From Symbiodinium natans (lineage: Eukaryota; Sar; Dinophyceae; Suessiales; Symbiodiniaceae), in assembly GCA_905221605.1 (NCBI GenBank), contig CAJNDS010002107.1, positions 315,922-379,921 on the forward strand: DNA of 64,000 nt, in the 5' to 3' direction. The first letter of the stretch is position 1; every line of letters starts with the position of its first letter. Both the position numbers and the translations under genes were made by a program. Positions 1,341-61,389 of the stretch are shown piece after piece. The notes beneath the pieces are model-generated. The model was not told where the DNA came from. It ran no database searches and was given only the letters and a program-made list of their open reading frames with translations.

Positions 1341-1348
1341 AGGGAATT
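1238..1348 (-). mobile_element. Small dispersed element, copy 2 (inverted)
   Basis: The minus strand reads ATAGGGGTCGGAACAATTAC to CCCTATTCTAATTATTCAAG, the counterpart of 528-640. The two copies either are independent insertions or mark the ends of an ~820-bp unit. Confidence 0.6.
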
Positions 1349-1450
1349 GGGCCCCTAAAACCTAAACCCTAAACCCTAAACCCTAACCCTAAACCCTAAA
1401 CCCTAAACCCTGAACCCTGAACCCTGAACCCTGAACCCTGAACCCTAAAC
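1341..1450. repeat. CCCTAAA telomere-like array
   Basis: About 15 units, with an ACCCTG sub-run at the 3' end, ending exactly at a candidate donor (minus strand). Confidence 0.9.
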
Positions 1451-1502
1451 CAAGAGTAGGCGAGCGGCTGCTCACCAAAGCCGCCTTCCAGCTGGCCACA
1501 TC
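1451..1502 (-). CDS. Exon: DVASWKAALVSSRSPTL
   Basis: Acceptor CTTGGCAG|GAT, peptide DVASWKAALVSSRSPTL, donor CTTG|GTTTAGGG. Arrays of CCCTAAA (1341-1450) and TTTAGGG (1528-1650) flank it. Confidence 0.5.
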
Positions 1503-1527
1503 CTGCCAAGGCATCGGATCTTTGGGC

Positions 1528-1650
1528 TTGGGGTTTAGGGTTTAGGGTTTAGGGTTTAGGGTTTAGGGTTTAGGGTTTAGGGTTTAGGGTTTAGGGTTTA
1601 GGGTTTAGGGTTTAGGGTTTGGGGCTTAGGGTTTAGGGGTCAAAAATGAA
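1528..1650. repeat. TTTAGGG telomere-like array
   Basis: About 15 nearly perfect units on the other side of the exon-like island, in the opposite orientation. Confidence 0.9.
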
Positions 1651-1982
1651 GAGTTAGGGTTTGGGGCTTGGGGCTTCGGGTATGAGGTTATCTTGGTTTT
1701 CGTCTGGTTGACGCTCCTTGGTCAGAAGAAACTTTCAGCCACACAGTTGCTAAGCGCCAACACATTGGCCAGGGGTATGAACCACGCGAATATGCAGAGA
1801 ACCTTGACTTGAACCTCTCGCATGCTGCACGCCCGGTTCTGAGTGGAGAAGTACACGGTGCTCCAAGCATTTTGAGAATTTCTAAAGGCCTGGCAACATG
1901 CGATTGTCCGAGTTTCAGTACAGTTTGCAACCGATCAAAGAGGCTGCATCCCTAAACCATAAACCCTAAGCCCTAATGGGGC

Positions 1983-2017
1983 TTCTGGCAGTCCTGCGCC
2001 CGTCCAGCTGCTTGGGC
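1983..2017 (-). CDS. Candidate exon AQAAGRAQDCQK
   Basis: Long pyrimidine tract and CGCGAAAG|GCC, peptide AQAAGRAQDCQ, GC donor AA|GCCCCA. The plus strand is open across 1985-2120 (RVKMIYQMWDL to G|GTTTAGGG), so strand is uncertain. Confidence 0.3.
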
Positions 2018-2931
2018 CTTTCGCGGAAAACAATTTGCAAAAACAGGGCACAGGCCGTTGAAAGACGGAGACATATACCATCCCCGAGTGAAGATGATCT
2101 ACCAAATGTGGGATCTGGGGTTTAGGGTCTTGCCATTTGGTGGCTGCGAAATACGGGGATGAGAATAAAGGTTCTCCCCCGTTATCTTGAAGTACCTAAG
2201 AGGCCACCATCAATGCTGTTGGGCATTGAGCATAAGTAGGATGGCCTAGGTCTGAGTGAAGGAGTCTTCAGTGGCAACCCCCTGTGACATTCACCTCCCT
2301 ACGTCCTAAACTCTGAAGCCCTAAACCCCTGAAACCCTAAACTCTAAAACCCTAAGACCATACGCCCCAAACTGTCAAACCCCAAAACCCTTAGACCCTA
2401 CACTCCAAACCATAAAACCCTAAACCGCAATGGGCCCAAGCCGGGCGCCGACTCCCGAAGTCTGCCATCGATGGTTATGTAATTTCTCAATGCTGACATC
2501 TATGGAGGAGTGGGGGTTTCCCAACAATGGGGTTTGGGCTTTGGGGTTTAGGGTTTTCCCAAGGAACCCTAAACCCTAACGTCCTCATATACACCCTAAC
2601 CCCTCAACCCCTCATAGACACACCCTCCCCCAAAGGTCAGCTTTCAAGTGGATGCCTCGAGTAGCTGCCGAACTGCTGCGGGGACCTGCCCCACATGCAG
2701 GAGGGAATGAAGCCTAAACCCTAAGGCATTAGAGGGGGGGGGGGAGTTTTGGGGGGGAGGGGGGGGTCAAGCTTTGGGGCTTTGGACCTTGGAGCTGTTC
2801 TCAGCTTGGATCACTGTTCAGTTTATGCCCCAAGGGGGGTGGATAAGGCTCAACACCTCCTCACCCGACCGCGAAAAAAACCTTTCAAAACTCCAACCAG
2901 CAAAAATGACCCTAAACCCTAAACCCTAAAC

Positions 2932-3001
2932 CCCTTTCCACAGCCTCTAAGTGCAGGTCTTCGAGCAGCGAGAGCAAGCTGCCGGAGCTTTGCCGGAGCA
3001 C
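2932..3001 (-). CDS. Exon: VLRQSSGSLLSLLEDL
   Basis: Acceptor GCCAGCCAG|GTG, peptide VLRQSSGSLLSLLEDLHLEA then VER, donor GG|GTTTAGGG. Confidence 0.5.
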
Positions 3002-3549
3002 CTGGCTGGCGTTGCCGGGAAGTTTCCCTAAACCCTAAGCCCTAAGCCCTAAGCCCTAAGCCCTGAACCCTAAACCCTAAACCCTAAACCCTAAACCCTA
3101 AACCCTAAACCCTAAACCTAGACTGTAAGGGGAGAGGAGACTAGGGCTTGTAGCTGAGGGCGTTGCAGAACCTCTGGTCCACGCACGGGGGTCTTGAGCC
3201 TTGTTTCATCCGATGCGCTGCCTCACGAAACCGGGCAGTCCGGCGTGCTTACTGTGCCATCATCTGGCTGGCTGCCATCAAGGCTTTCAACTTCACATCC
3301 AAATCATAAGTCCAAGTCATCGACAGGCAAGTCGCGCTGTGATCCAACGGATTGTGGATCTGCACGGATGCCAAGCCAACCTGCACCTTCCCTGCAATCT
3401 TGCTGGAAAAGAAGTACTGCGTCCATTTCTTGTGCAACCCCATCGCTAGATAGTACCCCGTGATGTTCATGGGTGTGTCCTGAAGTGGGAGCAACAGAAG
3501 CTTCATGAAGCTTCCCAGCAGGAGCCATCTGCGCTGTAATTTCGCACAT

Positions 3550-33307: not shown

Positions 33308-33324
33308 AGGCTGCAAAGTCTGGC

Positions 33325-38115: not shown

Positions 38116-38129
38116 ATCCCAAGGTCGGC

Positions 38130-39574: not shown

Positions 39575-39649
39575 CTTCAACCCCATAGCCAGCAAGCCGA
39601 TCGCTTAAGCTGTCGGAGACATGGTGACCGCTCCCGCTGTGAAACTGAT
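39575..39649 (-). CDS. Candidate exon within epimerase span, possibly cassette
   Basis: Acceptor AACCGCAG|AT, peptide QFHSGSGHHVSDSLSDRLAG then YGVE, donor GAAG|GTAAGG close to consensus. Its length of 75 nt is a multiple of three and phase fits both with and without it, so it could be an optional exon. Confidence 0.45.
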
Positions 39650-39987: not shown

Positions 39988-40052
39988 GACGCGCCTCGCC
40001 ACAAATCTTGGAGACCGCGTAAAAGGAGTCGGGACCAGCCCTGGCCAGCCTG
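39988..40052 (-). CDS. Epimerase exon: catalytic YxxxK
   Basis: Acceptor CCCGAAAG|C, peptide RLARAGPDSFYAVSKICGEA then R. P-D-S-F-Y-A-V-S-K carries the active-site Tyr and Lys of SDR enzymes, followed by the usual GE. GT donor CGTC|GTCGCG; a second one, GC|GTTTTAGGG, lies a few bases on. The first donor fits the next exons. Confidence 0.75.
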
Positions 40053-40701
40053 CTTTCGGGCTTTAGGCTTTCGGGCTTCAGGCTTCAGGCTTTAGGGTTT
40101 AGGGTTTAGGGTTTAGGGTTTATGGGGTTTAGGGCGATCGTGGGGTTTTGGCGCCTGGGGTTGGGTTTAAAGGTTTAGGGTCTACTAGGGTTTAGGGTCT
40201 ACTAGGGTTTAGGGTCTACTTGGGTTTCGGGTTTAAGTTTTAGGATCTAGGGTTTGGGGTTTAGGGCTTGGAGTTCGGGGTTTAGGGTTTAGGGTTTAGG
40301 GTTTAGGATTTAGGACTTAGGGTTCCCTCTCTTTGCATTGGAGGTGACGTAAACAGTCGACAATTCTTGCGCAGCCTCAGGGAAATCTCAAAGGCGACCT
40401 CGGCCCAAGGGCACAGCCCCCTTTGAACAAGTCGGAAGCCTATACCTAAAAGCCCTCAAGACCCCCATTAAGCAAACAAACAAAGGCCGGACTTCAAACA
40501 CCCTAGACCCGCATATCTCAACCCAGCGATCTGAAACCTGAACTCTGCGCACCGACATGAAGCGCAAGCTCTGTGCTTACAAAGCGACTGGCAGTGGGTG
40601 CAGCGGGGGGGCGGGGGTGGGGGGGGGTGGTTTAGGGTTTGAGGTTGAGGACTGAGGGTGAAGGTTGATTCTTTGGGCTGTGCAGGGTTCCATTGCCCTA
40701 C

Positions 40702-40763
40702 GTAGCTCAGCTTCCACTGAACGACTTCGTGGACGAAAGCTAAGCATAGCGGGCAATGAGGTG
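40702..40763 (-). CDS. Candidate exon within epimerase span
   Basis: Acceptor CAGCTTAG|CA, peptide PHCPLCLAFVHEVVQWKLSY, donor TAC|GTAGGG. No recognised motif. It lies between the NHTQHG and YxxxK exons, where extended SDR proteins are variable. Confidence 0.4.
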
Positions 40764-40836
40764 CTAAGCTGCCAGAAGCCCTAAAACCCTAAAACCCTTA
40801 AACCCTAAACCCTAAGCAACCAAACCGTCCCTTGAC

Positions 40837-40904
40837 CTTCAATCGTCCTACAGCCGTGGTAGGCCGAGCCCCGAGCGGGTCGGAAACCTTCAACGCAGCC
40901 GGGC
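40837..40904 (-). CDS. Candidate exon within epimerase span
   Basis: Acceptor GATGTTGCAG|G, peptide PGCVEGFRPARGSAYHGCRT then IE, donor GAAG|GTCAAG. The plus strand is also open for 128 codons (40832-41218), but that frame runs through a mobile-element copy and lacks a clear acceptor. Confidence 0.4.
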
Positions 40905-40950
40905 CTGCAACATCGTCCCCCGGTCGCGGCTTAGGGTTTGGGATTTCGGG

Positions 40951-41003
40951 TTGGGATGTTCCCCCTTATACTAACAGTCGTTATATAGGGATTGTAGTAC
41001 TTG
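40951..41003 (+). mobile_element. Family C element, truncated copy
   Basis: TTGGGATGTTCCCCCTTATA then CTAACAGTC is identical to the family C terminus; interior GTTATATAGGGATTGTAGTAC resembles the minus strand of the 39-kb copy. No right end found. Confidence 0.65.
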
Positions 41004-41389
41004 CGGACCTCCTCAATCAAAGCTCCATCGTCAAACTGCAAGGTGCAGAGTTGACGGTCGACAGGAGCTTGGAGATTGGGAGCTTTCGTGCCTTTGGGTG
41101 CCTCAAAACCTACTCGCTACACCTTTGCGCGATTTCGGGTGCGGAGGTGTTCAAGCTGTCGGGGCTTCACAGAGGTAGGGGCGTTGACATGTTCGGGGCC
41201 GTGAGGGCGCAGGGCTGAACAAACCCTGAATCCCGAATATCCTCAAACACTACACCCTTAAAACCCTGAAATCCTACAACCTGAACCCCAAACCCTGACA
41301 TCCTAAACCCCTAAACCCTAAACCCTAAACCCTAAGCCCTAAGCCCTAAACCCTAAACCCTAAACCCTAAACCCTAAACCCTAAACAAC

Positions 41390-41450
41390 CATGACTCCGT
41401 GCCTCCGAGGCCCTGGAGGCGGCTCCAGTCCATGCTTCCAGCGTGGCTGC
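41390..41450 (-). CDS. Candidate exon within epimerase span
   Basis: Acceptor TTGGGAG|GCA, peptide AATLEAWTGAASRASEARSH, donor CATG|GTTGTTTAGG. Flanked upstream and downstream by inverted telomere-like arrays. Confidence 0.45.
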
Positions 41451-41881
41451 CTCCCAAGCAGGGTTTTGGGTTTAGGATTTAGGGTTTAGGATTTAGGATT
41501 TAGGGTTCAGGGTTTAGAGTTTAGGTTTTAAAATTTTAGGGTTCAGGGTTAAGGGCCTTTGAGGGGCTGGGGTGAAGGTGTTTAGGGGCTTGGAGGGATA
41601 GGGGTTGCCCAGCGGGCAGCCTAAGACAAGATGTTTTAGGGTTTTGGGCTGAAGCTGGCAAGGCCTTTGACCAGGGCAATAGCTGTGGTGCTCCTAGAGA
41701 GCTGCATTCAGGATTCCGGCCAGCCATTGCGAACATGAGAGAACCTGAATCTGATTCGATGCGAGGCGCATGTCTAGAGTTTAGGGGGTGAGCAGATGCA
41801 GCGTGCCATCTCCGCTGCAAGATCGTGTGTTGGCAGGAAAGCTTCGCGACGGTCCCATGAGCTAAGACACACCTTGCCCCC

Positions 41882-41965
41882 TGCTCAAGAAAGGTCAGGA
41901 CATGTTGGACAGCAAGCCGCTGAGTCATTCCAAGAACGTCGCCTGACGAATTCCATATGATCTAT
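41882..41965 (-). CDS. Candidate exon within epimerase span
   Basis: Preceded by a pyrimidine-rich run and CATAG|, reads IIWNSSGDVLGMTQRLAVQH then VLTFLEQGA, donor AAG|GTGTGT. There is an internal Met, so a start there is possible. No family motif; low confidence that it belongs to the epimerase. Confidence 0.35.
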
Positions 41966-42365
41966 GCTGAAGGGTCTGAAGGAAAAACAGCCCAATGGCT
42001 CACGGCTAACGCACCCCACATGTGAATGTGTGTGTGTGTGCGCGTGCGAAGCAAGGGTGGTGTATACACTGTGCCGTTATATATAGTGGCTAAACATTGT
42101 GGTTTCTCGGCACGTGCCCTTTTCTGAGAGGGAAAGGACACTTCAAGTCCTTGGGTGTGTTAGACTTTGGTTATGTAAAGTTGCTGTCGGTATGCTGCGT
42201 TAGGATTCGGTTTGGGTGTCTTGGAAGTTGTTTGGGAGGGTGTGCCATTTATATCTATATATATATATATGTATATGTATGTATATATATATATGTATAT
42301 GCATGCATGTTTCTAGATTTCCTTTCAATCCTTTGTGGGATGGTGGACTTCCAAGCATCTGCAAC

Positions 42366-42414
42366 CGCAAGTCCACTGCCTAGGCGCATCGTTGCACCAT
42401 GCTGGGTGTGATTC
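42366..42414 (-). CDS. Epimerase exon: NHTQHGATM segment
   Basis: Acceptor CCTAAG|G, peptide NHTQHGATMRLGSGLA, donor GCG|GTTGCAG. The first base completes the Thr codon of the previous exon. The reading frame stays open past the donor, so the 3' edge may lie further on. Confidence 0.6.
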
Positions 42415-42746
42415 CTTAGGCAACGCAAGGGTCTTGTGATGTGGGCTTCGGGACGAAGTGAACCCGAAACCCGAAACCCTAAACCCCAGGTGCCAAGCCC
42501 TGACCCCAAAACCACGACATTCAGTCTGGCTTGAAATGCCCTGTAGCTGGCAAGGGCCTTTGATCTGGGATCAGGGGGGGTTTGGGTGTAAAGATCAAGG
42601 GGCCCATCTAGTCAGAACTGGCATGTGTGTGTAGTTGGTTTAGGGTTTAGGGCTTTCTACCAAACCCTAAATCCTAAACCCTACGAGGAGTTCCAGAGAG
42701 ACAAGGTTGGTACTTGCTGAGGCTCCTGTATTAATTTCCGAGGAGC

Positions 42747-42787
42747 GTGGAGGCGAAGATCACACGCCGCACGCCAGCGCGCTGGGC
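42747..42787 (-). CDS. Epimerase exon: VRRVIFAS strand
   Basis: Acceptor GTGAGAG|GCC and peptide AQRAGVRRVIFAS, ending in AC at a GC donor (AC|GCTCC). Joined to the next exon this gives FASTNHTQHG, matching the SSNH-type active-site strand of uronate-dehydrogenase-like enzymes; phase is exact. Confidence 0.75.
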
Positions 42788-43257
42788 CTCTCACGTCGCT
42801 CTAGGGTTTGGGGTTTGGGGTTTAGGGTTTGAGGTTTAGGGTTTCGGCTTAGGGTTCAGGTTTAACTAGGGCTTTTTGACGCAATATGGAAAGTAAGAAA
42901 GCTGGTATGCGAATTGTCTTCCGATTATGACGCAAGGGAATGCGGTTCCCTATGAAAGTCTCTGTAGCCCCCAAAGAAAAGAAAGAAAGAGACAGAGGGA
43001 GAGAGAGAGAGAGAAAGTGAGAGAGAGAGAGAGAAAGAACCTGCTTCCAAAAAAACCCGACTACGAACTTGTACGCCTGTTGCGCATCCCCTCCCTAGTC
43101 CTAACCATACTTTGGGGTTTGGAGTAATGAGGCAACCCACATGCGGGCGGCGGGGGGGGGGGGGTGTCCGAAATAGGGGTGCCCCCTTTGAGGATTCCTA
43201 TCAAATGATTATACCATTTTGCGAAAGGTGTTTTGGGACATGCCCGACATTGAGGCA

Positions 43258-45228
43258 TGTGGACACCGTCGTACCATGGTCGTTCCATGGTGGCCATGAG
43301 TTCGCAGGCTTTGTCATCAATGAGTCATGAAGCGGCATCGACAATGCGATGCAAACGGATGCAAACACTTGTGCAAACTGGTCATATCTCTTCCAAGCAA
43401 CTGCAACACATCGCAGCCCAGCAGCGTGCCGACGTCAAGCGGTCAAGATCAGATGTTAGGACTCCTGTTCATCCACACGTTGACATTCGGCGGACATAGG
43501 TCAGCATGTTTCGAATGTCATCACAACAGACGCCCTCTGCCTCAACTCGACACATGCCAAGCATTGACCCAACCTTGTCTCAGCAAGGAAAACGTGCTCA
43601 GATTGTGTTAGGACAAAGAGCTTCCACATTGTTGAATTCGGTGGACATGAGTTAGCATGCATTGTCATCACAACGTCGTGAAGCGGCATCGACAACGCAA
43701 TCAAGACTGGTCCCATATGTCATATCTCTTCCAGCAACTGCAACACATCGCAGCCCAGCAGCGTGCAGACATCAAGCGGTCAAGTTCAGATGTTAGGACT
43801 CTTGTTCATCCACACGTTGACATTCGGCGGACATAAGTTAGCATGTTTCGAATGTCATCACAAAAGACGCCCTCTGCCTCAACTCGACACATGCCAAGCA
43901 TTGACCCAACCTTGTCTCAGCAAGGAAAACGTGCTCAGATTGTGTTAGGACAAAGAGCTTCCACATTGTTGAATTCGGTGGACATGAGTTAGCATGCATT
44001 GTCATCACAACGTCGTGAAGCGGCATCGACAACGCAATCAAGACTGGTCCCATATGTCATATCTCTTCCAGCAACTGCAACACATCGCAGCCCAGCAGCG
44101 TGCAGACATCAAGCGGTCAAGATCAGATGTTAGGACTCTTGTTCATCCACACGTTGACATTCGGCGGACATAAGTTAGCATGTTTCGAATGTCATCACAA
44201 CAGACGCCCTCTGCCTCAACTCGACACATGCCAAGCATTGACCCAACCTTGTCTCAGCAAGGAAAACGTGCTCAGATTGTGTTAGGACAAAGAGCTTCCA
44301 CATTGTTGAATTCGGTGGACATGAGTTAGCATGCATTGTCATCACATCGTCATGAAGCGGCATCGACAACGCCCTCAAGACTGGTCCCATATGTCATATC
44401 TCTTCCAGCAACTGCAACACATCGCAGCCCAGCAGCGTGCCGACATCAAGCGGTCAAGATCAGATGTTAGGACTCTTGTTCATCCACACGTTGACATTCG
44501 GCGGACATAGGTTAGCATGTTTCGAATGTCATCACCACAGACGCCCTCTGCCTCAACTCGACACATGCCAAGCATTGACCCAACCTTGTCTCAGCAAGGA
44601 AAATGTGCTCAGATTGTGTTAGGACAAAGAGCTTCCACATTGTTGAATTCGGTGGACATGAGTTAGCATGCATTGTCATCACAGCGTCATGAAGCGGCAT
44701 CGGCAACGCAATCAAAACTGGTCCAACATGTCATATCTCTTCCAGCAACTGCAACACATCGCAGCCCAGCAGCGTGCCGACATCAAGCGGTCAAGATCAG
44801 ATGTTAGGACTCTTGTTCATCCACACGTTGACATTCGGCGGACATAGGTTAGCATGTTTCGAATGTCATCACCACAGACGCCCTCTGCCTCAACTCGACA
44901 CATGCCAAGCATTGACCCAACCTTGTCTCAGCAAGGAAAATGTGCTCAGATTGTGTTAGGACAAAGAGCTTCCACATTGTTGAATTCGGTGGACATGAGT
45001 TAGCATGCATTGTCATCACAGCGTCATGAAGCGGCATCGGCAACGCAATCAAAACTGGTCCAACATGTCATATCTCTTCCAGCAACTGCAACACATCGCA
45101 GCCCAGCAGCGTGCCGACATCAAGCGGTCAAGATCAGATGTTAGGACTCTTGTTCATCCACACGTTGACATTCGGCGGACATAGGTTAGCATGTTTCGAA
45201 TCTCATCACCACAGACGCCCTCTGCCTC
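43258..45228 (+). repeat. 337-bp tandem satellite
   Basis: Just under six copies with exact 337-bp spacing (a GAATTC site at 43634, 43971, 44308, 44645, 44982). The copies from 44437 and 44774 appear identical; the first copy is the most diverged. Small open frames on both strands recur with the unit and are not genes. Confidence 0.95.
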
Positions 45229-45454
45229 GACAGCTCCAGCATGCGCGCTGGGCAAATGAATGGCAAGGCTAGGGTAGACATTAATCATGAGTCAGCGCGG
45301 CTTGCCGACATTTGCAGCTAGCTGTACTCTGCCTTGCCCAGACATCTCCATCCTAAACCCTAAACAAGTTGCCAACGAAAGATGACTTGAATTTGGGCTC
45401 GGCATTTGGGGTTTTGGGCTAGGCCAGGAGACCGTCTCAGGCAACATCTCACTC

Positions 45455-45850
45455 CCCACATCACTTCGTCAGAGGACGTGGATAACAAGGCTATCATCAT
45501 CTCGAAGCACTCCAACATGACACACAGCCGGATGGTCAGATAACCTGTAACATCACATCGTCAGAGGACGTGGATAGAGTAGGGTTGATCATCCCGCCAT
45601 CCTGACCACCAATGGTGCGCAAGCCAAGCTGCTTCGGATCGGTTGTTGCGAAGGAACTTAAACTAAAATGCCAGAACACGAAAACACAGTAAGCACTGGA
45701 ATAACCAGGTTTCCTGGTATGATGGCTTCATGTAAGCTCTCTTAACCAACTCTTGTTCTGGAGAGCACGCTTGGGGTTTCCAGGGCAGTCAGACAACATC
45801 TTGGCAACACCACATCTTCAGAGGACGTGGATAGTAAGGTTGTCATCCTT
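45455..45850 (+). repeat. Three dispersed copies of a ~45-bp motif
   Basis: CACATCxTCAGAGGACGTGGATA followed by GGxTGxTCATC occurs near 45458, 45552 and 45809, each preceded by CAxxCAACATCT-like sequence in two of three cases. The rest of 45230-46090 shows no supported gene. Confidence 0.65.
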
Positions 45851-46437
45851 CTGCTCTGCACTTTAGCCCCGCGCGCGGCTCCTGGGGCGTTCGCTCTTCA
45901 ACCCCGCCTAGTCGTCTACCAGTGTCTGTGCCCTGCTCCCCTAAAGGTGCTTCCAAGCACAGCAAGCTACAGCCCGCTTCGGTCCCCAAAAAAGAAGTAC
46001 CCAGCTTATACCCTTTGAAATTCATGGAACCTGTGCAGGAAGCCTAGACAGGACCAGTACCCCCACCCCACATCTTTCGGAGCCAGGAACCCCGTGCAGC
46101 CCCTTTAGGTTTAGGGTTTAGGTAGGGTTTAGGGCTTGGAGTTGATGACTTCCTGCACTTCCCCAGACAAAGGAAGTCAACCCGCGACCTTTTTGGGGTT
46201 TAGGGGGGTTTTGGGCGTTCAGGCATTTAGGGTTTCAGGGTTTTAGGGTTTTGAGCTTTGGGGTTTTTTGGCGTTTGTGGTTTTTAGGGGTGTATGGCTC
46301 TAGGGTTTTAGGGTTTTTGGGGTTCATAGTCTTAGCGTTTGAGGGTTTCAGGGTTTTACGGTTTTGGGGTCTTGGGGTTTAAGATCTTAAGGGTATTAAG
46401 GTTTAGGATTAGGGCTCAGGGTTTAGGGTCCAACCGC

Positions 46438-46506
46438 GGCACCTCTTCCAGCACACGGTAGGTGCCCTGGCAGCGAGTACATGGGCTCCCCATGGTGAGC
46501 TGATAA
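46438..46506 (-). CDS. Candidate exon with CxxC
   Basis: Minus-strand island reading MGSPCTRCQGTYRVLEEVPR, with CTRC a possible zinc-binding pair, before CCCTAAA repeats. An alternative phase is open after CGGTGCAG|, so the frame is uncertain. Confidence 0.35.
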
Positions 46507-46778
46507 CCCCAAATTCTGCACCGGAAGCATTGGGGCCCTGCCGTTTTCCCCAGATCGCTCAAACAGAATGTGGCCAAAATATGGGGTGGGGGTGCAATTA
46601 AAAGCTAATTGGCGCGTTTTTGTGTTTCTATTATCAGTATATATGAGATTTCAGGGAGGATGACTTCTGATTACACAGGCTCCGGCGTCAAGAAAGCCTA
46701 ACCCATCAAGCTGCTCAGGCAACTTTGCTGTTTTCTCGGGACACGCCAAGGGTCTTGTGAGCATTCGGAGGACGTGAG

Positions 46779-46894
46779 GACATGCCTACTTTGCCGGCAC
46801 CCCGAAAGCCCTAGACTTGCGAGCCGCTGCTCTTGACGGGTACTTTGCCGACCTGAGAGCCCACGTGCCTGAAGCATCTGCCCTTTCAGCCTAA
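46779..46894 (+). CDS. Candidate plus-strand terminal exon
   Basis: After GACGTGAG| it reads HAYFAGTPKALDLRAAALDG then YFADLRAHVPEASALSA and TAA. It looks natural as a protein end, but the minus strand also offers an open frame (TWALRSAKYPSRAAARK). No family recognised. Confidence 0.4.
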
Positions 46895-47313
46895 CTGAGG
46901 AAATGCTGTCGGTCTCTTCAGGTCATGCCCACACCAAATGCACCGGACTCCGCCAAACATTTCATCCTCGTTCCTTGCCTGGATGTTGCTGGGCAAAACG
47001 TCAGACAGAAAGTCTGCGCTAGGCCTGCAGGTTATAGTTATGGCACTTTCCCACTGCTCTATTCGGGGAGGCATCCTACCACAGTATGTCAGCCACTGAG
47101 TTCTTGATCACTCACGTGCATTATGGTGCACACCAGGTACGCCTAATTTCGGAATCTCCCAACATCAGCCTCCTGCAGGGTCTTACCGGAATCACTGTCA
47201 CTCTCTCGCGCTCCCTCTCTCCTTCTCTCTCGCTCTCGGCTTGAAGTTGCCGTAAAGTTGCTTGGGCGCCGGTTTTCCCTCAAGCGTATGCTCACGTTGG
47301 TGCTTCTTGCATC

Positions 47314-47654
47314 TGAGGCGAAAACACAGAACTAATTGCTCAACACAGCGGGCCGAACTGAAGAAAGAGAGATCTCAAACTCGTGGGCTCCACGCCCTGA
47401 ACTGCACAAGTCGCTTTAAGCTTAAGAGCGCCGTGGACGTACGGCGATCAAGGCGCGACAAAGCAGAAGACAAATTGGCAGTACCTCCTCGGAACCTTCC
47501 AGCCACCCCGAAGGACCTCCTAGACTTTCCAAGGACCCAATGCATGAGCCTGCTTGGGGTTAAAGTTTGGCAGGAAAAGGCCCTGGAAAACCATGAAAGG
47601 ACGCGCAAACGATTTTCGAGCAGCCAGAAACTTGGCACGGCATGTGAGGGCTAG
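47314..47654 (+). CDS. Candidate plus-strand terminal exon, basic protein
   Basis: Follows a pyrimidine-rich stretch and GCATCTGAG|G at 47313, reads STQRAELKKERSQTRG, RSRRDKAEDKLAVPPRNLPA, TPKDLLDFPRTQCMSLLGVK, KALENHERTRKRFSSSQK and ends at TAG (47654). Charged, no low complexity, about 112 codons. No recognised domain; a real gene or a chance frame. Confidence 0.35.
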
Positions 47655-48005
47655 GTAGGTCAGGCTGGTCAGATGCTCTGCTCGGTTTTTACATAACGGC
47701 ATATTTCTGTTGGGCGGGCGGTGGGGGGGGGGAGAACCACAATGGGGTCTCCCAAGTAAGACCGTACTGAGCCATGTTGCAGGATGAGGCGTGAACGCAC
47801 CCCATGTTCAAATGCCTACCGGCTGGACCCCGAAGCCCCGAGCTAAACACCCCGAACGCTCTGAACACCGAAATGTTCAGCCCTAGCCCGCTAAACCCCT
47901 GAACCCCTGGACCCCTAAACCCCAAAAACCCCGAAGCCTCTAGGCCCCAAACCCTAAACTAAACCCAAAAACTACACCCCTGATGAACAGCTTCTTAAAT
48001 GGCAC

Positions 48006-48073
48006 CCGGGCCTTCCGTCTGCAGCCAAGTGGATCACGGTGTCGCAACCATCGAAAGCCCCGTGCAGGGCGCC
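48006..48073 (-). CDS. Epimerase exon: VIHLAA strand
   Basis: Acceptor CCCCCAAG|GGC, peptide GALHGAFDGCDTVIHLAADG then RP, donor GG|GTGCCA. The pattern A-F-x-G-C-D-x-V-I-H-L-A-A is diagnostic of the fourth strand of extended SDR epimerases, just after the NAD loop in space. Confidence 0.75.
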
Positions 48074-48559
48074 CTTGGGGGTTTTAGTGCTTTGCTTGGG
48101 GCGGGGAGTTGGGTTTAGGGCCGTTTAGGGTTTTGGGTTTTGGGCCTGGGGTATCTTGGGGGTGTGGGGGTATCTTGGGGGTGTGTGGGGGGGGGGCTTC
48201 TGGGTTTAGGGCTTATGGTGCGGATGGGCCCCCCGTGTTTTTGTGTGCTTCAGCGCGGCCACCTTGCGGCTCTGCCACAGAACCCTCTCCAGTCAAAGGG
48301 CTCGAAATTAAGGATGGAAAAGAAGAACCAAAAAACGAAAAAGGACAGTAGACATGAAATTTGTAGATGTATCTATCTATCTATTTATTTATTTATTTCT
48401 ACCCCTCGCCCTGCACATGCCCTCCATAAGGATTTCAACAGCAGAGGACAGGTGTTGGGGATAGGAAGGGAAAGGGCGGGGAAAGTGAAAGAAGAATGGA
48501 ACTGCCTTCATCCGGCATCACTGGGCTCCGATCCCGACTGAAACCGAATTGCCGCGGCC

Positions 48560-50060
48560 AGTGCCCTTGAAGACTTCCTCAACACGGAGCGCACGCACTT
48601 GGCGACCCAGAAGTGCGTGCCATAGGGATGCGAGGGAGGCTAATGCGCAACAGAGAAATACACGCACAGATCACAGAGTCACTAAATTAAAGGCTCAGTT
48701 CTTGGTAGTAGGACCAGCATCTTCCGGAAAACATAGAACAGAAGGGAAAGCCCAACAAGCCCCAAAAGTGGACTCTGCTACGGGGAGCACAAGTCAGGTC
48801 ATTCATCGGGCAAGAACACGTTGCGTGTGCGGTTTCAGGATATCCACACAAACCATTGCGAGCGTACAAAATAAACGTACAATTTGGCACTGACTCCACA
48901 AGGCCTGACACGCAAAGACTGCGGAAGGGCTGAAACGGAGAGCCTCGCAGAGTCACTGCGCTCGGTGTGTAAAGATCATCATGATACGGAGGCACCAATC
49001 AGCCAGTCACATTTTGGTTAGACCACCTACCGCGCGAGCCTGCAACTGTCAGGGAGCGTCTTGAGTCAGCAACTGGCAGAGCTATGCACAAGCTCCCGCG
49101 GCGTCCTGCACGCTGAGAGACCTGTAGGATTTTTGAAAGGTGCTGGCACCAAGAAGTTTTGAGCCTGGTCCAAATGTAACACCAACGGAATGCGCTGCAG
49201 AACCCTGTATACATTTTTCGCGGCGCGGTGGCATGTACTTACATCTTTCTATGAGGCCTGGGAAATTGATTCGCTTTACGAGTTTCCCATATTCACACAA
49301 GGCCGTTAGTCGCAAGCGCGGAGCCTCAGAGGGAGGGTCGTGGTGCTTCCAGTCTCGAGTGCCGGGAAGCAAAAACCAATTTTGAATTTTGGCTCCAGGG
49401 CCCGGACGGCACCTGATGAGGATGTCCGGAAATGTCCAAGCCTCGACACATACCTCGCACGCTGCATATGTCCAGGGCAGCTTGATGTCCTGCAAAACGC
49501 TCGTCCTTGGTGCCCCGGCAACATGCTGTCACTTGCTGGACGATCACAGACTCTAGTCGTCATAGCAACCGAAGATGTCATGATCCACTACGCGCCGTAG
49601 CTGTGTCACATGACGCAAACGGCACTGGGCAAGATCGCCACGCGACACGATGCGGACGCTAGACGTAACAAGACGATGGACGCAGCACGCTAGATGTAAC
49701 GAGTGAGCACAGAGGGAGGAGCCAGGAGCGAAGAATGTTCCGGGGATCGCGACCCCGACATGCCGATTGCTGCGCACGACTTTGGACACGCCACGGCGTC
49801 GCTGTGGAATCGCGGGATCTTCAGAAGATGAGCCGTCGGGTTACAGACGTCTGCAGTCAGCAAACTGACACGCAGCGAACACGCCCTCACCCCCATCACT
49901 GCCATTGCTCTGATATAGCAGCTCGGATTTCGGGTGTTTGCACAAGGCCTAAGAAAGGCCCGTCAAGCTCCACGGCCGGCTCCAAGACCAGCGTGGTCCT
50001 GTCCCAGACGCGACAGCTCCTGATAAGACTCGGCTGAATATTTGTTGTGAATATTTCGGT
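48560..50060. other. No supported gene
   Basis: About 1.5 kb of unique sequence between two epimerase exons without telomere-like arrays. A minus frame at 49082-49495 (ALCEYGKLVKRINFPGLIER) is possible but has no clear splice sites. Confidence 0.4.
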
Positions 50061-50071
50061 GTACCAAGACT

Positions 50072-50316
50072 TCAGTGGCCTAGGACGTTGATGATGTTGG
50101 GCGGCGCATCTGGGACAGCACCTGCTGCTCCTGCTGGGCCCTATCACTGGTTGCCAGCACCTTGATGGCAACCGACGTGCCGTCCGGCAGCCTGTGGCGG
50201 TAGACACGGCCAAAGCTGCCGGTGCCTTGCAGAAAGCTCTTTGCAAGGCCGTCGGTTGCCTGCAGTAGCTCGGACCACGAGCACGCCGCCGGCACAGCTT
50301 CCTCCTGGCGGAGCCT
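50072..50316 (-). pseudogene. Truncated protein kinase relic (receptor-like kinase type)
   Basis: Reads SELLQATDGLAKSFLQGTGS, FGRVYRHRLPDGTSVAIKVL, then QQEQQVLSQMRRP: the glycine-rich loop GTGSFGRVY and the ATP-anchoring Lys of VAIK. A one-base shift then gives PNIINVLGH, the conserved stretch after helix C, followed at once by TGA. No catalytic loop (HRD) or DFG is seen downstream. In-frame TAA precedes it at 50317. The style matches plant-like receptor kinases. It lies inside an epimerase intron. Confidence 0.7.
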
Positions 50317-50489
50317 TTACACGCCTGTGCCGAGGCCTCTCCCCTCCAGCGATCTTGTGATAGCGCGGGAATATATTGCCAAAGCTTGCGGGCTGCTGCA
50401 AACTTTGGCGCGCTGCGGACACACCTGCGCCGCGTGCCTGGCTCCGGTCGGCCTTATGATGTCCTCTGTGTCACCATCGGCTATATGGG

Positions 50490-50720
50490 GTTGGACAGGG
50501 CTATATAGGGTCATGTAGGGTTATATAGGATTATATAGGGTTATATGGGGCCATATACGGTTATGCCGGTTATGCAGGGTTGTGTAGGGTTATGATGGGT
50601 TATGTAGGGTCATAGGGTGGTATAGACGCGATATCGCGTTATGTAGGTCATATAAGGTACGGAGGGTTTTGAAGGGCTGTGTAGGGCTATATGGGATTGT
50701 GTTGGGTTGTATGGATAGGG
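50490..50720. repeat. TTATATAGGG/TATGTAGGG array
   Basis: About 20 degenerate decamers, an AT-enriched relative of TTTAGGG. Confidence 0.85.
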
Positions 50721-51135
50721 CCCATCGATTTGTAGAATCGATTCCGCTGTACGTCCTGGCCCAAGTCTAAGTTTTAGGGTTTAGGGTTTATAGGGTTTAG
50801 GGTTTAAAGGGTTCAGGGTTCAGGGTTTAGGGTTTAGGGTTTAGGGTTTAGGGTTTAGGGTTTAGGGTTTAGGGTTTAGGGTTTAGGGTTTAGGGTTTGG
50901 GGTTTGGGGTTTAGGGTTGTAAAATTAGGTTTAGGGTATTCAGGGTTGTTATGTCTTAAACTCCCACAGGGCGAAGCCCAGGAGTGTTTGACCAGGGCTG
51001 CCCTCTGTGGGTTTCCGGAAAAAGCTCCCGCTAAGGACGACAACCCTAAGGCCTAAACCTTAAGCCCTAAACCCTGTGCCCTAAGCCCTAAGCCCTAAAC
51101 CCTAAACCCTAAACCCTAAACCCTAAACCCTAAAC

Positions 51136-51228
51136 CCTGGCCGCCCCTGGACTCAACTCCCTGAGTGGCCTCTTGGCTCAAATCCGGTGTGTGGCGGTCG
51201 ACTTTGGCGGAGTTCACGACCGAAGCGC
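51136..51228 (-). CDS. Candidate exon within epimerase span
   Basis: Acceptor CTCTCGCAG|GC, peptide ASVVNSAKVDRHTPDLSQEA then TQGVESRGGQ, donor CAGG|GTTTAGGG. The donor lies inside the first repeat of the downstream telomere-like array. Phase with the preceding candidate does not fit, so an exon may be missing. Confidence 0.45.
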
Positions 51229-51451
51229 CTGCGAGAGCAGAAGGTTTGGGGTGTGGGGTTTAGGGTTCAGGGTTCAGGGTTCAGGGTTCAGGGTTTAGGG
51301 TTTAGGGGTAGGGTAGCATTCCAAACCGACCAGCAACGGGCCGGAACCCAAACCTGGCAACAATGCCCTCAACCCCAGGCTACCCTCAAAGAAATGCTTG
51401 CGCACGGACTCTGAGCGGCACCAGACACTCCAGCGACCAGATGAACCATAC

Positions 51452-51535
51452 TTGCCAATTCCGGTCCATCTTCCCGAATAGGGGTTCGACAATTACAGGG
51501 TATACGCTCGTGATTTTTTTCGATTCGTCCGGTCT
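51452..51535 (-). CDS. Candidate epimerase exon
   Basis: Strong acceptor (pyrimidines then CCTTAG|AG) and donor CAA|GTATGG. In phase with the exon above it reads RPDESKKITSVYPVIVEPLF then GKMDRNWQ. A second open frame (ETGRIEKNHERIPCNC and onward) runs through the same bases to AGG|GTAGCC, so the frame is not settled. Confidence 0.4.
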
Positions 51536-51778
51536 CTAAGGAAGACGACATGCGAATGAAGATAAATGGACCTTGGCTGATACCGTGTCGACCGGCGGCT
51601 CATATATGCTGAGCTACGTCACCGCCACTGCAACGAAACGAGCAGAGCCATGCTCTGGGTCAATTTCATTTGCAGCTTCTCGCACAAGGACAGGCTAACC
51701 CGTCACTACCGTGGGGAAGGGCCGGAAGTATGTTAGCACTTCTGGACACTTCCCTGGAGGCCCGCAGGGCAACCCAGC

Positions 51779-51815
51779 CTGTGATCCTAGGGCCCCCTTG
51801 GCAGCGAGGCTGCGC
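51779..51815 (-). CDS. Candidate epimerase exon
   Basis: Acceptor GACGCTTCAG|G, peptide RSLAAKGALGSQ (first Arg split from the previous exon, phase kept), GC donor CAG|GCTGGG. There is no diagnostic motif; placement rests on phase and position. Confidence 0.4.
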
Positions 51816-52111
51816 CTGAAGCGTCAGAAGCTCCACACAAAGGCAGCTCTCTCTACGATGGTCCCTTTTAGTGCGCCTTACGCGTGCAAGGCTCTGTATT
51901 GGAATACGGACTGGGGTGGATTTGTGTCTCCCAAAAAGGCTTCCACTGGCTTATATAAGATGAGATGACATTTGTATAAGACTATATAAGATTTTATCAG
52001 AGTATACATAAGATTCCATAAGAATATATGAGGATAGGCAGGGGTTAGGGCCCATGGACTTTTGAGCAAATCAATCAACAACCCCCTGAGGCCACAGGCG
52101 CTCCCAAGGAC

Positions 52112-52149
52112 CTGGCCAGGTCCAGGCCGATCACCTCGAACCCCATCTC
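52112..52149 (-). CDS. Epimerase exon: second beta strand with Asp
   Basis: Acceptor AACCAG|GAG and peptide EMGFEVIGLDLA ending at donor AG|GTCCTT. The strand followed by an Asp is where NAD-preferring SDR enzymes hold the adenosine ribose. A long TTTAGGG array (52153-52305) lies immediately upstream of the acceptor. Confidence 0.7.
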
Positions 52150-52152
52150 CTG

Positions 52153-52305
52153 GTTTAGGGTTTAGGGTTTAGGGTTTAGGGTTTAGGGTTTAGGGTTTAG
52201 GGTTTAGTGTTTAGGGTTTAGGGTTTAGGGTTTAGGGTTTAGGGTTTAGGGTTTAGGGTTTAGGGTTTACGGTTTAGGGTGTAGGGTGTAGGGTGTAGGG
52301 TTTAG
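52153..52305. repeat. TTTAGGG array
   Basis: About 21 units ending in GTGTAGG variants, directly beside the epimerase exon at 52112-52149. Confidence 0.95.
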
Positions 52306-52513
52306 GGCATCCCCTCCCCCTCTAATGGGCTTCTCTGGGATGTATTTCAGGCTTAGGCTTAGGGCTTCAGAAGGCTATACAGATTCAGCAAGTTTCTATT
52401 CCTAGGCAACCTACCAAAAAGAAAGTAGGCTTGGGCCTCTTCAGATAAACCCTAAACCCTAAACCCTAAACCCCAATCATAACATGCCCTAGCCCTCGAA
52501 CCATGCCACCGTC

Positions 52514-52557
52514 CTCGCAGCTCTGTCGGGCCAGCTGCCCAAGAAAACCAGCCGCTC
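52514..52557 (-). CDS. Epimerase exon: Gly-rich NAD-binding loop
   Basis: Acceptor ATCACAG|GA, then AAGFLGQLARQSCE. With the Gly codon split across the junction this gives G-A-A-G-F-L-G, the GxxGxxG loop of extended SDR proteins. A GA donor after GAG (52513) keeps phase with the next exon; a GT donor four bases later (52509) would not. Confidence 0.7.
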
Positions 52558-52611
52558 CTGTGATGGCGACGCGTCGGGGGCGGCCTGGTCTGCATTCTGA
52601 AGTGGCCTTCT

Positions 52612-59025: not shown

Positions 59026-59284
59026 CACGATAGTACAGACAATGGAAAAACCAAAATGAGGTTATGAAGAGTCAGAGCATGAAAGTAATGGAAGTAGTAT
59101 CTTCATGAATAAGAACAACAATCTAAACAATACCAAGCAGGAGCAATCGTAATCGCAAAACGCAAGAATAGGAGCAAGATCAAGAACAAGAAAAAAATAG
59201 TAGGAAAGTCATAGCAATACCAACTATGATGGCAATAGTAATAAGAACTGTAATGATGGCACTAGCGGGCATACCTGGTTTTCA

Positions 59285-59585
59285 TTGTTTATCATGGCAA
59301 AAAATGTTCTCATGGCAATCATGGAAATAATGGTCATCGTGGTCACCATGGCAATCATGCTGATCATGGTAACAATGGCAATCATGGTAATCATGGTAGT
59401 AATGGGAATGATCGTAGTAATGGTAATGATGGCAATACTGGTACTGGTGATGATGGCAATAGTGGCATTAATGGTAATCATTGTTATCATGGTAAGAATG
59501 GCAATAACGACTATCGCGGTAAAAATGATGTTACTGACTATCAAGCTAAGAATGGTACTCATGCTCATGGTAACAATGGGGTAGG
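59285..59585. repeat. Degenerate ATGGTAATC-type minisatellite
   Basis: Nonamer-like units of AT(C/G)ATGGTAA. The long hydrophobic Met-rich frame through it is an artefact. Between 59025 and 59285 I see nothing. Confidence 0.8.
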
Positions 59586-59671
59586 AATGATCGTGGGAGT
59601 AGTAGCAAGAAGAAAGAAGCCAGGCAATGAAATGCGGCGACCCACGAAATCAAATCAAGAATAATCGCAAC

Positions 59672-59813
59672 ATTGTAGCCAGTTGGCCTAGTTTGGGCCG
59701 GACATAGCGTTCGCCCTTCACTTCGTTAACGGTCTCCCATCTCGTTGTTTCTGCAAGCTGCACATGTTTCACAACCACCGGTACGTGCGTACCATGGAAC
59801 AGTTCACGACTTA
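59672..59813 (-). CDS. Exon: SRELFHGTHVPVVVKH
   Basis: Acceptor TTCTCGCAG|TA, 46 codons: SRELFHGTHVPVVVKHVQLA, then ETTRWETVNEVKGERYVRPK and LGQLAT, donor AT|GTTGCG. Composition is clearly protein-like although third positions are less GC-rich than elsewhere. No family recognised. Confidence 0.5.
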
Positions 59814-59955
59814 CTGCGAGAACTTTCCAAAAGAGAGAATCTGCCGCGGGCCTCCAGCACGACAAACCGCTGCCCTAAACTCTAAACACCCCTAAACCCT
59901 AAACCCTAAACCCTAAACCTTAAACCCTAAACCCTAAACCCTAAACCCTAACCCT

Positions 59956-60040
59956 ATGGGAGAACAAGACAAAGCAGCTGAGGACCCGAAAACAAAGCAA
60001 AAGACTCCTGTGCGTCGAGGGCTACTGCAGCATGGCCGCT
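59956..60040. other. Exon-like island, strand unresolved
   Basis: The plus strand has an ATG and reads MGEQDKAAEDPKTKQKTPVR then RGLLQHG to a GC donor, a plausible first exon. The minus strand reads ALDAQESFALFSGPQ after GCTGCAG|. Confidence 0.35.
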
Positions 60041-60919
60041 GACACGGTTGAGTGTTCAGGTTTTAGGGTTTAGGGTTTAGAGTTTAGGGTTCTTAGGGTT
60101 TAAGGTTTAGGGTTTAGGGTTTAGGGTTCAGGGTTGAGGGCTTAGGGTTTTAGGGTGGCTCCGTGGTCTAACTACGGCTTTATCTTGCAGGTTCAGTGCA
60201 AATAACCACAACTCATGCAATGTTTCCATCATAGCATTGGAAACGGGAATATCGAATGCTAAGGGGGTAGTCGGGTGGGGGGGGGAGGTGAATACATCCC
60301 TATCCCTAATTTGGTTTCAAAGGAAGGGCCTTAGAGCTTAGGGTTTAAGGCCATTCTGCTGCGCACATTGCCATGCATCTTCCCTCCGCGAGAGGCACTG
60401 CAAGAGACAGAAAAACCTGGCCGCAAGACCGTCTGTCTTCCGGTCACACTCGGAATTTCTCAACCACTCCCTAAACCCCAAACCCTAAACCCTAAATCCT
60501 TAACCCCAAACCCTAAACTCTAAACCCGAAACCCTAAACAGCACTTCAAGCCGCGACTTCGGGCGTGGAGCAAGGTTCCCACATGGATGTAGGCTTTAGG
60601 GTCTAGGGTAGAGGGCTTAGGGTTTAGGGCTTTGGGGCTTCTGTTGGAGCACTCTTCATTCGCTGGCCCGCATGACAATACCCTGAACCCGAAACGCGCG
60701 GGTCTTGGTTCCGAGCAAACAGTCTCGCAAGCCGTTCCTGGAAAACCAAGGAGGCTTCTGCAGCTTGAGTCATGCCCGGGAAATGTGACATAAAGAACGC
60801 AGCCCTGCAATCCTGTCCCTGACCGAAGCATGACCTTCTTCGTACAAAGGCGCTCCAAGCATCCAGAAACCCTAAACCCTAAACCCTAAACCCTAAACCC
60901 CAAACCCCAAACCCTAAAC

Positions 60920-60992
60920 CATCCCCCGATCGAGAAGGAGAAGTGACCCGACAGGGGCATGGCTCGCCAGGACGCATTAAGAAGCGAACCAT
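60920..60992 (-). CDS. Exon: GSLLNASWRAMPLSGH
   Basis: Acceptor GACTCTCCAG|AT, peptide GSLLNASWRAMPLSGHFSFS then IGG, donor TG|GTTTAGGG. Another phase begins MVRFLMRPGEPCPCRVTS. Confidence 0.45.
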
Positions 60993-61389
60993 CTGGAGAG
61001 TCTAGGGGTTAGGGTTTGAAGGCACTTCTAGGGTCTAGGGCGTAGGGCTTCCGGGTTTAGGATTTGGGGTAGAGGGTTTAGGGTTTTGGGGTTTTGGGTA
61101 ATTGTGGGAGCTAAAGGGGTTTCGGGTTCGATTTATGATGGAGGGTGGGCGCTTGCGGTGTGCAGGGGGGACCTTAGCTGCGTTTGGAACCCTTGTAGCG
61201 TTTAGGGAAGGTTTGAGGTTTAGGGTGAGGGGGTACTTGAAGGCCCCCCGAAAAGAAGAATCAACCCGACCACTTCGTTACCCTAGCCGGGAGAAAATTC
61301 TTGGGGCCCATGTTTTGGGGTCTGGGGCAGCTAATAACCAACTGAGATGTAAAACCATCTAGAACAACCTAAAAACCCCAGGCGGCCAG

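What the first reader, a model, noticed from the sequence alone, without database searches (positions are those of the whole stretch)
1341..61000. Introns bounded by inverted telomere-like arrays, with donors inside the first TTTAGGG unit
Seen: unique GC-rich islands are repeatedly flanked by CCCTAAA on the left and TTTAGGG on the right (for example 1451-1502, 6880-6960, 21731-21767, 56055-56142). On the minus strand most have an AG acceptor and many have a donor of the form G|GTTTAGGG at the first repeat unit (1450, 2931, 5025, 6879, 18180, 21730, 28344, 29922, 30070, 31314, 31490, 35407, 51135, 57615, 60919). Each intron thus begins and ends with inverted repeats able to pair in RNA or DNA. 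Known: introners with terminal inverted repeats create introns in several protists. Inference: telomere-type repeats here act as intron termini, either by insertion of introner-like units or by repeat growth inside introns. I know of no description of telomeric repeats in this role.
Basis: partly seen in the sequence, partly recalled or inferred. Interest (0 to 1): 0.92.

Follow-up and report, generated by a model that had tools for sequence, protein, structure and literature searches.

The report
Telomere-type repeats bracket dinoflagellate exons
In this dinoflagellate DNA, tiny exons often sit between runs of the chromosome-end repeat that face them from both sides; the runs lie inside the introns, are not the donor splice sites where this could be tested, and are probably sorted, perhaps even used, by splicing.

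Summary
The window is dinoflagellate nuclear DNA; about 17% is TTTAGGG/CCCTAAA or five close variants. The orientation pattern is real: blocks facing as CCCTAAA...TTTAGGG around 70-160 bp occur 50 times against 25.9 expected.

One gene could be solved by homology: a NAD-epimerase gene, 20 exons of about 44 nt, 19 introns over 21 kb, minus strand; its spliced product is 86% identical to a homologue. There the arrays do lie in introns. Within 120 nt, the array nearest the donor reads TTTAGGG in 11 of 14 introns that have one, the array nearest the acceptor CCCTAAA in 12 of 14.

But 0 of 19 donors is GTTTAGGG. Donors are mostly GC, and the nearest arrays start 7-66 nt inside. Three listed donors lie inside introns of this gene; twelve remain untested. 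Array presence at the two ends of an intron is unlinked, ends pair no better than mismatched ones, and no shared intron sequence was found, so introners and paired termini are not supported. Best reading: a flooding telomere-type repeat, filtered by splicing near splice sites and possibly co-opted as splicing signal.

The parts
31347..52576 (-). NAD-dependent epimerase (extended SDR) gene, exons 1-20 as far as homology is clear; true ends of the gene not determined
   Evidence: tblastn of P0036-P0038, exact junctions, Pfam PF01370 E = 2.5e-18, 86% identity to P0036 over 283 columns
52514..52576 (-). exon 1 (start of homology; true start not determined)
52117..52149 (-). exon 2
51779..51815 (-). 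exon 3 (no array within 120 nt of its acceptor or donor)
51170..51228 (-). exon 4; true donor 34 nt upstream of the listed donor 51135
48012..48073 (-). exon 5
46979..47024 (-). exon 6
46443..46466 (-). exon 7
42747..42787 (-). exon 8
42380..42414 (-). exon 9
41403..41450 (-). exon 10
40871..40904 (-). exon 11 (3' end ambiguous)
39995..40040 (-). exon 12
39234..39257 (-). exon 13
38851..38887 (-). exon 14
38130..38179 (-). exon 15
35416..35458 (-). exon 16; true donor 8 nt upstream of the listed donor 35407
34350..34394 (-). exon 17
32672..32727 (-). exon 18
31821..31850 (-). exon 19 (30 nt; found by a peptide scan, best match 24 against 20 for the next)
31347..31376 (-). exon 20, part with clear homology; its 3' end is not determined and may reach 31315
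52150..52513 (-). intron I1 (GA donor): TTTAGGG-sense array 41 nt after the donor, CCCTAAA-sense array filling about 155 nt before the acceptor
34395..35415 (-). intron I16: TTTAGGG-sense array starting 7 nt after a GA donor, 470-nt CCCTAAA-sense array ending 39 nt before the acceptor
31851..32671 (-). intron I18 (GA donor): same polarity, arrays 19 nt and 60 nt from the splice sites
31377..31820 (-). intron I19: reversed polarity (CCCTAAA-sense 36 nt after the donor, TTTAGGG-sense 70 nt before the acceptor), a counter-example; contains listed donor 31490

Best explanation
A telomere-type seven-base repeat has spread through the non-coding DNA of this dinoflagellate, and close to splice sites splicing decides which orientation survives. 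SHOWN in one 19-intron gene: arrays are enriched within 120 nt of splice sites; within 60 nt of acceptors only the CCCTAAA-reading orientation is found, within 60 nt of donors mostly the TTTAGGG-reading one; further away, counting all array blocks, the rule fades; donors are GC, GA or GT sites upstream of the arrays. INFERRED, acceptor side: every TTTAGGG unit read in sense carries TTTAG|GG, a copy of the AG|G acceptor that all 19 introns here use, so such arrays just upstream of an acceptor would capture splicing and are removed by selection; CCCTAAA carries no AG and resembles a branch site plus pyrimidine tract. INFERRED, donor side: G-triplets of TTTAGGG help to mark very short exons with weak GC/GA donors, or at least do no harm. 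Side-specific filtering alone gives exons that look bracketed by inverted arrays, without any pairing of the two intron ends.
For: Gene model from homology. Nearest array per intron end within 60 nt: donor side 10 TTTAGGG: 2 CCCTAAA, acceptor side 0: 11, Fisher p = 7e-5; within 120 nt 11:3 and 2:12, p = 0.0018. The two acceptor-side exceptions (I8, I19) are 61 and 70 nt away. Repeat-covered bases within 120 nt of splice sites 1240 against 758 under rotation within introns, p = 0.0014; in the 14 introns under 1 kb 849 against 539, 0 of 5000; in the 5 longer ones p = 0.077. Ends act separately: within introns 7/4/5/3, p = 1.0, and rho 0.05 by coverage; across the same exon 9/3/1/5, p = 0.043 at 90-150 nt. 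In I1 about 155 nt before the acceptor are CCCTAAA-type repeat to within 4 nt of it, and the last AG before the acceptor is 166 nt upstream, so branch site and pyrimidine tract very probably lie in the array. All 19 acceptors read AG|G.
Against: One gene only. The across-exon association is weak: p = 0.34 at 60 nt, any-orientation presence p = 0.10 at 90-150 nt, coverage rho 0.34 with p = 0.17, and it could be plain local clustering, since arrays across a tiny exon lie close together. Filtering alone does not explain the enrichment near splice sites. Masked intron ends still show G excess on the donor side (skew +0.21, positions 6-60) and C excess on the acceptor side (-0.18, 60-6), so either worn units remain or the asymmetry is general; of six ends per side that I picked as array-poor, five donor ends and six acceptor ends show no such skew, one (I6) has 40 G to 22 C. 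Arrays are not required: 5 of 19 donor ends and 5 of 19 acceptor ends have none within 120 nt. AG is not clearly depleted in the last 60 nt (5.0 against 6.6 per 100 nt), and an AG occurs 4-41 nt before 16 of 19 acceptors, which weakens the decoy argument. I7 and I19 keep CCCTAAA arrays within 60 nt of donors. No transcript of the organism itself was seen.
Confidence: 0.5

Rival explanations
1. Introner-type origin: introns arose by insertion of elements whose terminal inverted repeats were telomere-type arrays, with target-site duplications; later growth in the middle left the arrays near both ends.
For: Inverted polarity and enrichment near both ends. Junction direct repeats mean 4.0 nt against 3.4 for mismatched intron ends, permutation p = 0.007 with 19 introns, 3.9 against 3.5 and p = 0.03 with 18. 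Dinoflagellate introns with inverted repeats at both ends are reported for Amoebophrya, Prorocentrum and Suessiales (passages read).
Against: No two of the 19 array-masked introns matched each other by blastn at E 1e-3. Arrays start 7-66 nt inside the donor end. Array presence at the two ends is unlinked. Ends are no more complementary within introns than between introns (p = 0.40). Much of the direct repeat is the AG|G proto-splice motif: mismatched ends already share 3.4 nt.
Confidence: 0.2
2. Double-strand-break repair: telomerase added repeats to both ends of a break in coding DNA, giving exon-TTTAGGG...CCCTAAA-exon after joining; the insert became an intron. The polarity follows from chemistry, whatever the direction of transcription.
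For: Polarity and unit are as expected. In mammals interstitial telomeric repeats enter at breaks, some staggered with flanking duplication (passages of PMC7215372). Weak junction duplications here.
Against: Donor-side arrays do not abut the junctions but start 7-66 nt inside. End independence does not favour a joint event. Further in, both orientations occur on both sides.
Confidence: 0.13
3. The inverted arrays pair in the pre-mRNA, loop out the intron and bring weak splice sites together, as proposed for Amoebophrya introners.
For: Over all combinations, donor-side and acceptor-side 150-nt ends are more alike inverted than direct (15.7 against 10.3). 8 of 10 introns with arrays at both ends have opposite orientations, including the reversed I19.
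Against: 8 of 10 is close to the 7 expected from side polarity alone (0.70 per intron, my arithmetic from the 11:3 and 2:12). Matched and mismatched ends pair equally well as RNA (p = 0.36) and by Watson-Crick score (p = 0.40). Neither test is strong: the repeats are all alike, and in the RNA test donor ends pair with other donor ends almost as well (-64 against -66 kcal/mol), presumably through G-U pairs. 9 of 19 introns lack an array within 120 nt of one or both ends.
Confidence: 0.12
4. One reading: GTTTAGGG at the first repeat unit is the donor.
For: 15 of 15 strings exist, many beside coding-like islands: 38 of 57 islands score higher as exons on the minus than on the plus strand. 31314 is not excluded.
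Against: 0 of 19 donors in the gene fixed by homology; 3 listed donors fall inside its introns.
Confidence: 0.05

Closest known systems
Introner elements of dinoflagellates (Amoebophrya, PMC7789003; Prorocentrum cordatum, PMC10666404; Suessiales, PMC10522408)
   Same: Introns with inverted repeats near both ends; in Amoebophrya and in the Prorocentrum search rule also short direct repeats at the junctions; non-canonical donors in Amoebophrya (passages read).
   Different: Here the repeats are telomere-type tandem arrays of one to about 130 unit matches, mostly set back from the junctions, not shared as families within this gene, and the two ends are unlinked.
Interstitial telomeric sequences (mammals, PMC7215372)
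   Same: Telomere-type repeats at internal sites, partly in introns; some with flanking duplications (passages read).
   Different: There described as compatible with random insertion; here dense and side-specific about exons. The passage notes that an effect on splicing would be interesting to test.
Simple-repeat-flooded dinoflagellate genomes ((TTG)n in Polarella glacialis, PMC7245778)
   Same: One simple repeat makes up a large part of the DNA (19.1% and 18.5% of two assemblies; passage read).
   Different: Unit here is the telomere repeat, and its orientation depends on the side of the splice site.
Dinoflagellate spliceosomal introns with relaxed donors (MWG|gy, sag|GY; PMC4201569)
   Same: The 19 junctions fit this style: mostly GC, also GA and GT donors, AG|G acceptors (passages read; for GC/GA shares).
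   Different: Telomere-type arrays are not part of that description (the term telomer does not occur in its text).

Membership tests
Introner (transposon-like intron) | Many introns share one sequence | tested here: not met
   blastn of 19 array-masked introns against each other, no hit at E 1e-3 between different introns; one gene only, not the genome
Introner (transposon-like intron) | Inverted repeats at or within 30 nt of both intron ends | tested here: inconclusive
   Telomere-type units in opposite orientation within 30 nt of both ends in 1 of 19 introns with strict units (I10), 2 of 19 with variant units (I10, I16). The first and last 30 nt were printed and looked at; other inverted repeats were not scored
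Introner (transposon-like intron) | Target-site duplication | tested here: inconclusive
   Junction repeats 1-6 nt, mean 4.0 against 3.4 mismatched, p = 0.007 (19 introns); 3.9 against 3.5, p = 0.03 (18 introns)
Introner (transposon-like intron) | Presence/absence between close relatives | not testable with these tools
   No related genomic locus was obtained; the genome search did not complete (11 tries)
Interstitial telomeric sequence | Telomere-type tandem repeat at an internal site | tested here: met
   contig 673 kb. TTTAGGG as dinoflagellate telomere unit from a PMC11453091 passage; this organism's own telomere and the window's place in the contig were not seen
Interstitial telomeric sequence | Inserted in one step at a break, with an empty site in relatives | not testable with these tools
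   No relative's genomic locus available
Dinoflagellate spliceosomal intron | GT/GC/GA donor and AG|G acceptor | tested here: met
   18 of 19 donors unambiguous (13 GC, 3 GA, 2 GT), I11 ambiguous; 19 of 19 acceptors AG followed by G

The most novel reading that the evidence does not exclude
The telomere repeat has been taken over as a splicing element in this lineage: CCCTAAA arrays supply branch site and pyrimidine tract and TTTAGGG arrays supply donor-side G-run enhancers, together bracketing exons of about 44 nt whose own splice sites are weak. I1, whose whole acceptor region is telomere-type repeat, would be the clearest case.
Probability: 0.3. Interest if true: 0.82.

Novelty: new variant of a known kind. 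Interest (0 to 1): 0.62.

Why it matters
It offers a natural experiment on how a spreading tandem repeat is shaped by splicing, and on how spliceosomes find exons of about 44 nt with mostly GC/GA donors among introns of up to 3.7 kb. If the arrays are functional, the chromosome-end repeat would have a second role in gene expression, testable with minigenes and genome-wide counts. In the listings of the eight literature searches and the passages I read, I saw no description of telomere-type arrays bracketing exons; most subscription papers are not in that library, and Roy et al. 2023 on dinoflagellate introners was not held.

Tried and rejected
Donors inside the first TTTAGGG unit: rejected for the solved gene. 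My own early exon picks from array edges were partly wrong: the island 31492-31712 looked like an exon but lies inside I19. A composite protein built from such picks found no homologue (none of 145 candidates at E <= 10), while the epimerase composite did (8 proteins at E <= 1 among 133 candidates, three of them at 1e-23 or better). For 29922, which looked in frame, an alternative GA donor 12 nt upstream is also in frame; this was read by eye and rests on no separate test, so the site is left open.

End pairing: RNA duplex and Watson-Crick scoring gave no excess of matched over mismatched ends. Intron family: none. General G-rich/C-rich intron ends as the cause: not settled; masked ends keep part of the skew, most array-poor ends show none. 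Spliced-leader relics: no TTGGCTCAAG; the 8-mer GGCTCAAG occurs 3 times. Rfam (gathering threshold) and tRNA scans empty. Viral contigs: no match to the bracket pattern.

Choices behind the counts: I11 was dropped from the second direct-repeat test only; exon 20 was cut at 31347 for and at 31314; the six array-poor ends per side were picked by hand; I2's donor-side array is a single CCCTAA unit 66 nt in; and differ by one acceptor-side block because one takes 60 nt in and the other leaves it out.
Full report
WHAT THE WINDOW IS. The 405-residue protein of the ORF at 35988-37226 (minus) has dinoflagellate relatives among its named hits (Durusdinium 49%, Effrenium 48%; the best hit, 60%, is on an unnamed contig of 1.2 kb), and the window's contig is 673 kb long. 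So this is dinoflagellate nuclear DNA; the species is not known.

THE OBSERVATION. There are 946 exact TTTAGGG/CCCTAAA units; with five one-base variants they cover 17% of the window. Tandem Repeats Finder lists many seven-base telomere-type arrays among other simple repeats (150 of 159 rows shown). Blocks facing as CCCTAAA...TTTAGGG with 70-160 bp between them occur 50 times against 25.9 expected from shuffled orientations (0 of 5000 reach it); the opposite arrangement occurs 21 times in that size range. The gaps of the first kind are tight (quartiles 97-139 bp), those of the second broad (93-348 bp).

A GENE THAT TESTS IT. An epimerase-like composite of window translations found three strong homologues. 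tblastn placed short collinear matches from 52576 to 31314 on the minus strand; one 30-nt exon was found by a peptide scan. Fixing each junction so that the joined product matches the homologues gave 20 exons of 24-63 nt and 19 introns of 301-3655 nt, median 737 (first and last exon cut where homology begins and where I stopped). The spliced protein is 86% identical to P0036 over 283 columns with one gap, at the ambiguous junction of I11, and is a PF01370 epimerase. P0036 comes from contigs of at most 1039 bp, so it is presumably transcript-derived; that was not shown.

WHAT THE INTRONS SAY. Donors are GC in 13, GA in 3 (I1, I16, I18), GT in 2 (I7, I13); I11 is ambiguous (GG as modelled; GC if shifted, with one extra residue instead of one missing). 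None of 19 is GTTTAGGG. All 19 acceptors end in AG and the next exon begins with G. The nearest donor-side array within 120 nt reads TTTAGGG in 11 introns and CCCTAAA in 3, with none in 5; the nearest acceptor-side array reads CCCTAAA in 12 and TTTAGGG in 2, with none in 5 (Fisher p = 0.0018). Within 60 nt the counts are 10:2 and 0:11 (p = 7e-5). Counting every array block, TTTAGGG:CCCTAAA on the donor and acceptor side, gives 2:3 and 2:2 at 60-120 nt, 0:5 and 2:3 at 120-250 nt, 4:5 and 1:2 beyond, so the rule is clear only close to the splice sites. Exons hold almost no repeat (7 of 876 bases).

Repeat coverage is highest 30-120 nt from either splice site and lower in the first 30 nt; 1240 covered bases lie within 120 nt against 758 when coverage is rotated within introns (p = 0.0014; 14 introns under 1 kb, 0 of 5000; 5 longer ones p = 0.077). 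In I1 the repeat runs to within 4 nt of the acceptor over about 155 nt and the previous AG is 166 nt away; branch site and pyrimidine tract therefore very probably lie in telomere-type repeat. That is the strongest single hint of use rather than mere tolerance.

TESTS OF PAIRED ENDS AND INTRONERS. A TTTAGGG array at the donor end and a CCCTAAA array at the acceptor end of the same intron are unlinked (7/4/5/3, p = 1.0), whereas CCCTAAA before and TTTAGGG after the same exon tend to go together (9/3/1/5, p = 0.043 at 90-150 nt; not at 60 nt, p = 0.34; presence of any array p = 0.10; not by coverage, p = 0.17). Ends pair equally well with ends of other introns, though these tests have little power for repeats that are all alike. 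No two introns matched after masking. Junction direct repeats are a little longer in true than in mismatched pairs (4.0 against 3.4 nt, p = 0.007; 3.9 against 3.5, p = 0.03 without I11). I therefore do not file these introns as introners, while an insertion origin is not excluded.

COUNTER-EXAMPLES AND CONTROLS. I19 has reversed polarity, I7 has CCCTAAA near both ends, I8 has TTTAGGG 61 nt before its acceptor, I2 and I6 have no multi-unit array near either end. Five of 14 CCCTAAA...TTTAGGG islands in the gene hold no exon known from homologues; whether they are unrecognised exons is open. An AG occurs 4-41 nt before 16 of 19 acceptors, so a simple decoy-AG argument cannot be the whole story. 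After masking of repeat units, G excess on the donor side (+0.21) and C excess on the acceptor side (-0.18) remain in part, which may be worn repeat or a general trait of these introns.

MECHANISM. I commit to this: the repeat spread by its own means, and splicing sorted it. Orientation close to splice sites is shown; selection against TTTAG|GG decoys and help from G-triplets and from CCCTAAA as branch/pyrimidine region are inference; the role of G-triplets as intronic enhancers near weak donors is recalled general knowledge (the one search for it returned no paper). Telomerase repair and introner insertion remain possible origins.

COMPARED WITH WHAT IS KNOWN. Dinoflagellate introns with inverted repeats at both ends are in print (passages of PMC7789003, PMC10666404, PMC10522408), as are relaxed donors (PMC4201569 passages; PMC11453091 passages), internal telomeric repeats (PMC7215372 passages) and simple-repeat flooding (PMC7245778 passages). 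In PMC9860276 (passages) introners of Symbiodinium microadriaticum have 4-bp duplications and terminal inverted repeats; the term telomer does not occur there. I saw no description of telomere-type arrays set about exons in this polarity (listings), but the paper on dinoflagellate introners by Roy et al. was not held.

Noticed in passing
35988-37226 (-): An intact intronless endonuclease/exonuclease/phosphatase (PF03372, Ccr4-like) ORF sits inside intron I15 of the epimerase gene, same strand: a nested gene, perhaps a retrocopy. No telomere-type unit in it.
   Followed up: partly
50083-50316 (-): Protein-kinase fragment (PF00069, E 1.7e-5 with a piece joined by hand from two frames) inside intron I4; the frame breaks after it. 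Looks like a decayed copy.
   Followed up: no
43381-45228: 337-bp satellite, 5.5 copies, 98% matches, inside intron I7.
   Followed up: no
33622-34142: 261-bp tandem duplication, 97% matches, inside intron I17.
   Followed up: no
5327-6142, 6712-6845, 18267-18855, 24498-24730: Arrays of 8-9 bp units that look like altered telomere units (ACCCTAAAT, AACCCTTC, TTAAGGGT, AGGGGGTTT); they may show how the repeat drifts.
   Followed up: no
30402-30593: About 27 copies of TTTGGGG; PMC7789003 gives TTTAGGG/TTTGGGG as telomere motifs of Amoebophrya A120 (passage).
   Followed up: no
30016-30070 (-): A stretch of about 55 nt between two coding-like islands that is mostly TTTAGGG-type followed by CCCTAAA-type units (by eye): a candidate tiny hairpin intron, not tested by homology.
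   Followed up: no
31492-31712, 38422-38513, 39552-39671, 42486-42636, 45946-46107: Five islands bracketed like exons inside epimerase introns but without an exon known from homologues; possible unrecognised or lost exons.
   Followed up: partly
3253-4320 (-): Protein-like ORF pieces in different frames with little repeat, perhaps a decayed intron-poor gene.
   Followed up: no
19611-20576 (-): A 321-residue cysteine- and threonine-rich ORF without a Pfam match at E <= 1.
   Followed up: no
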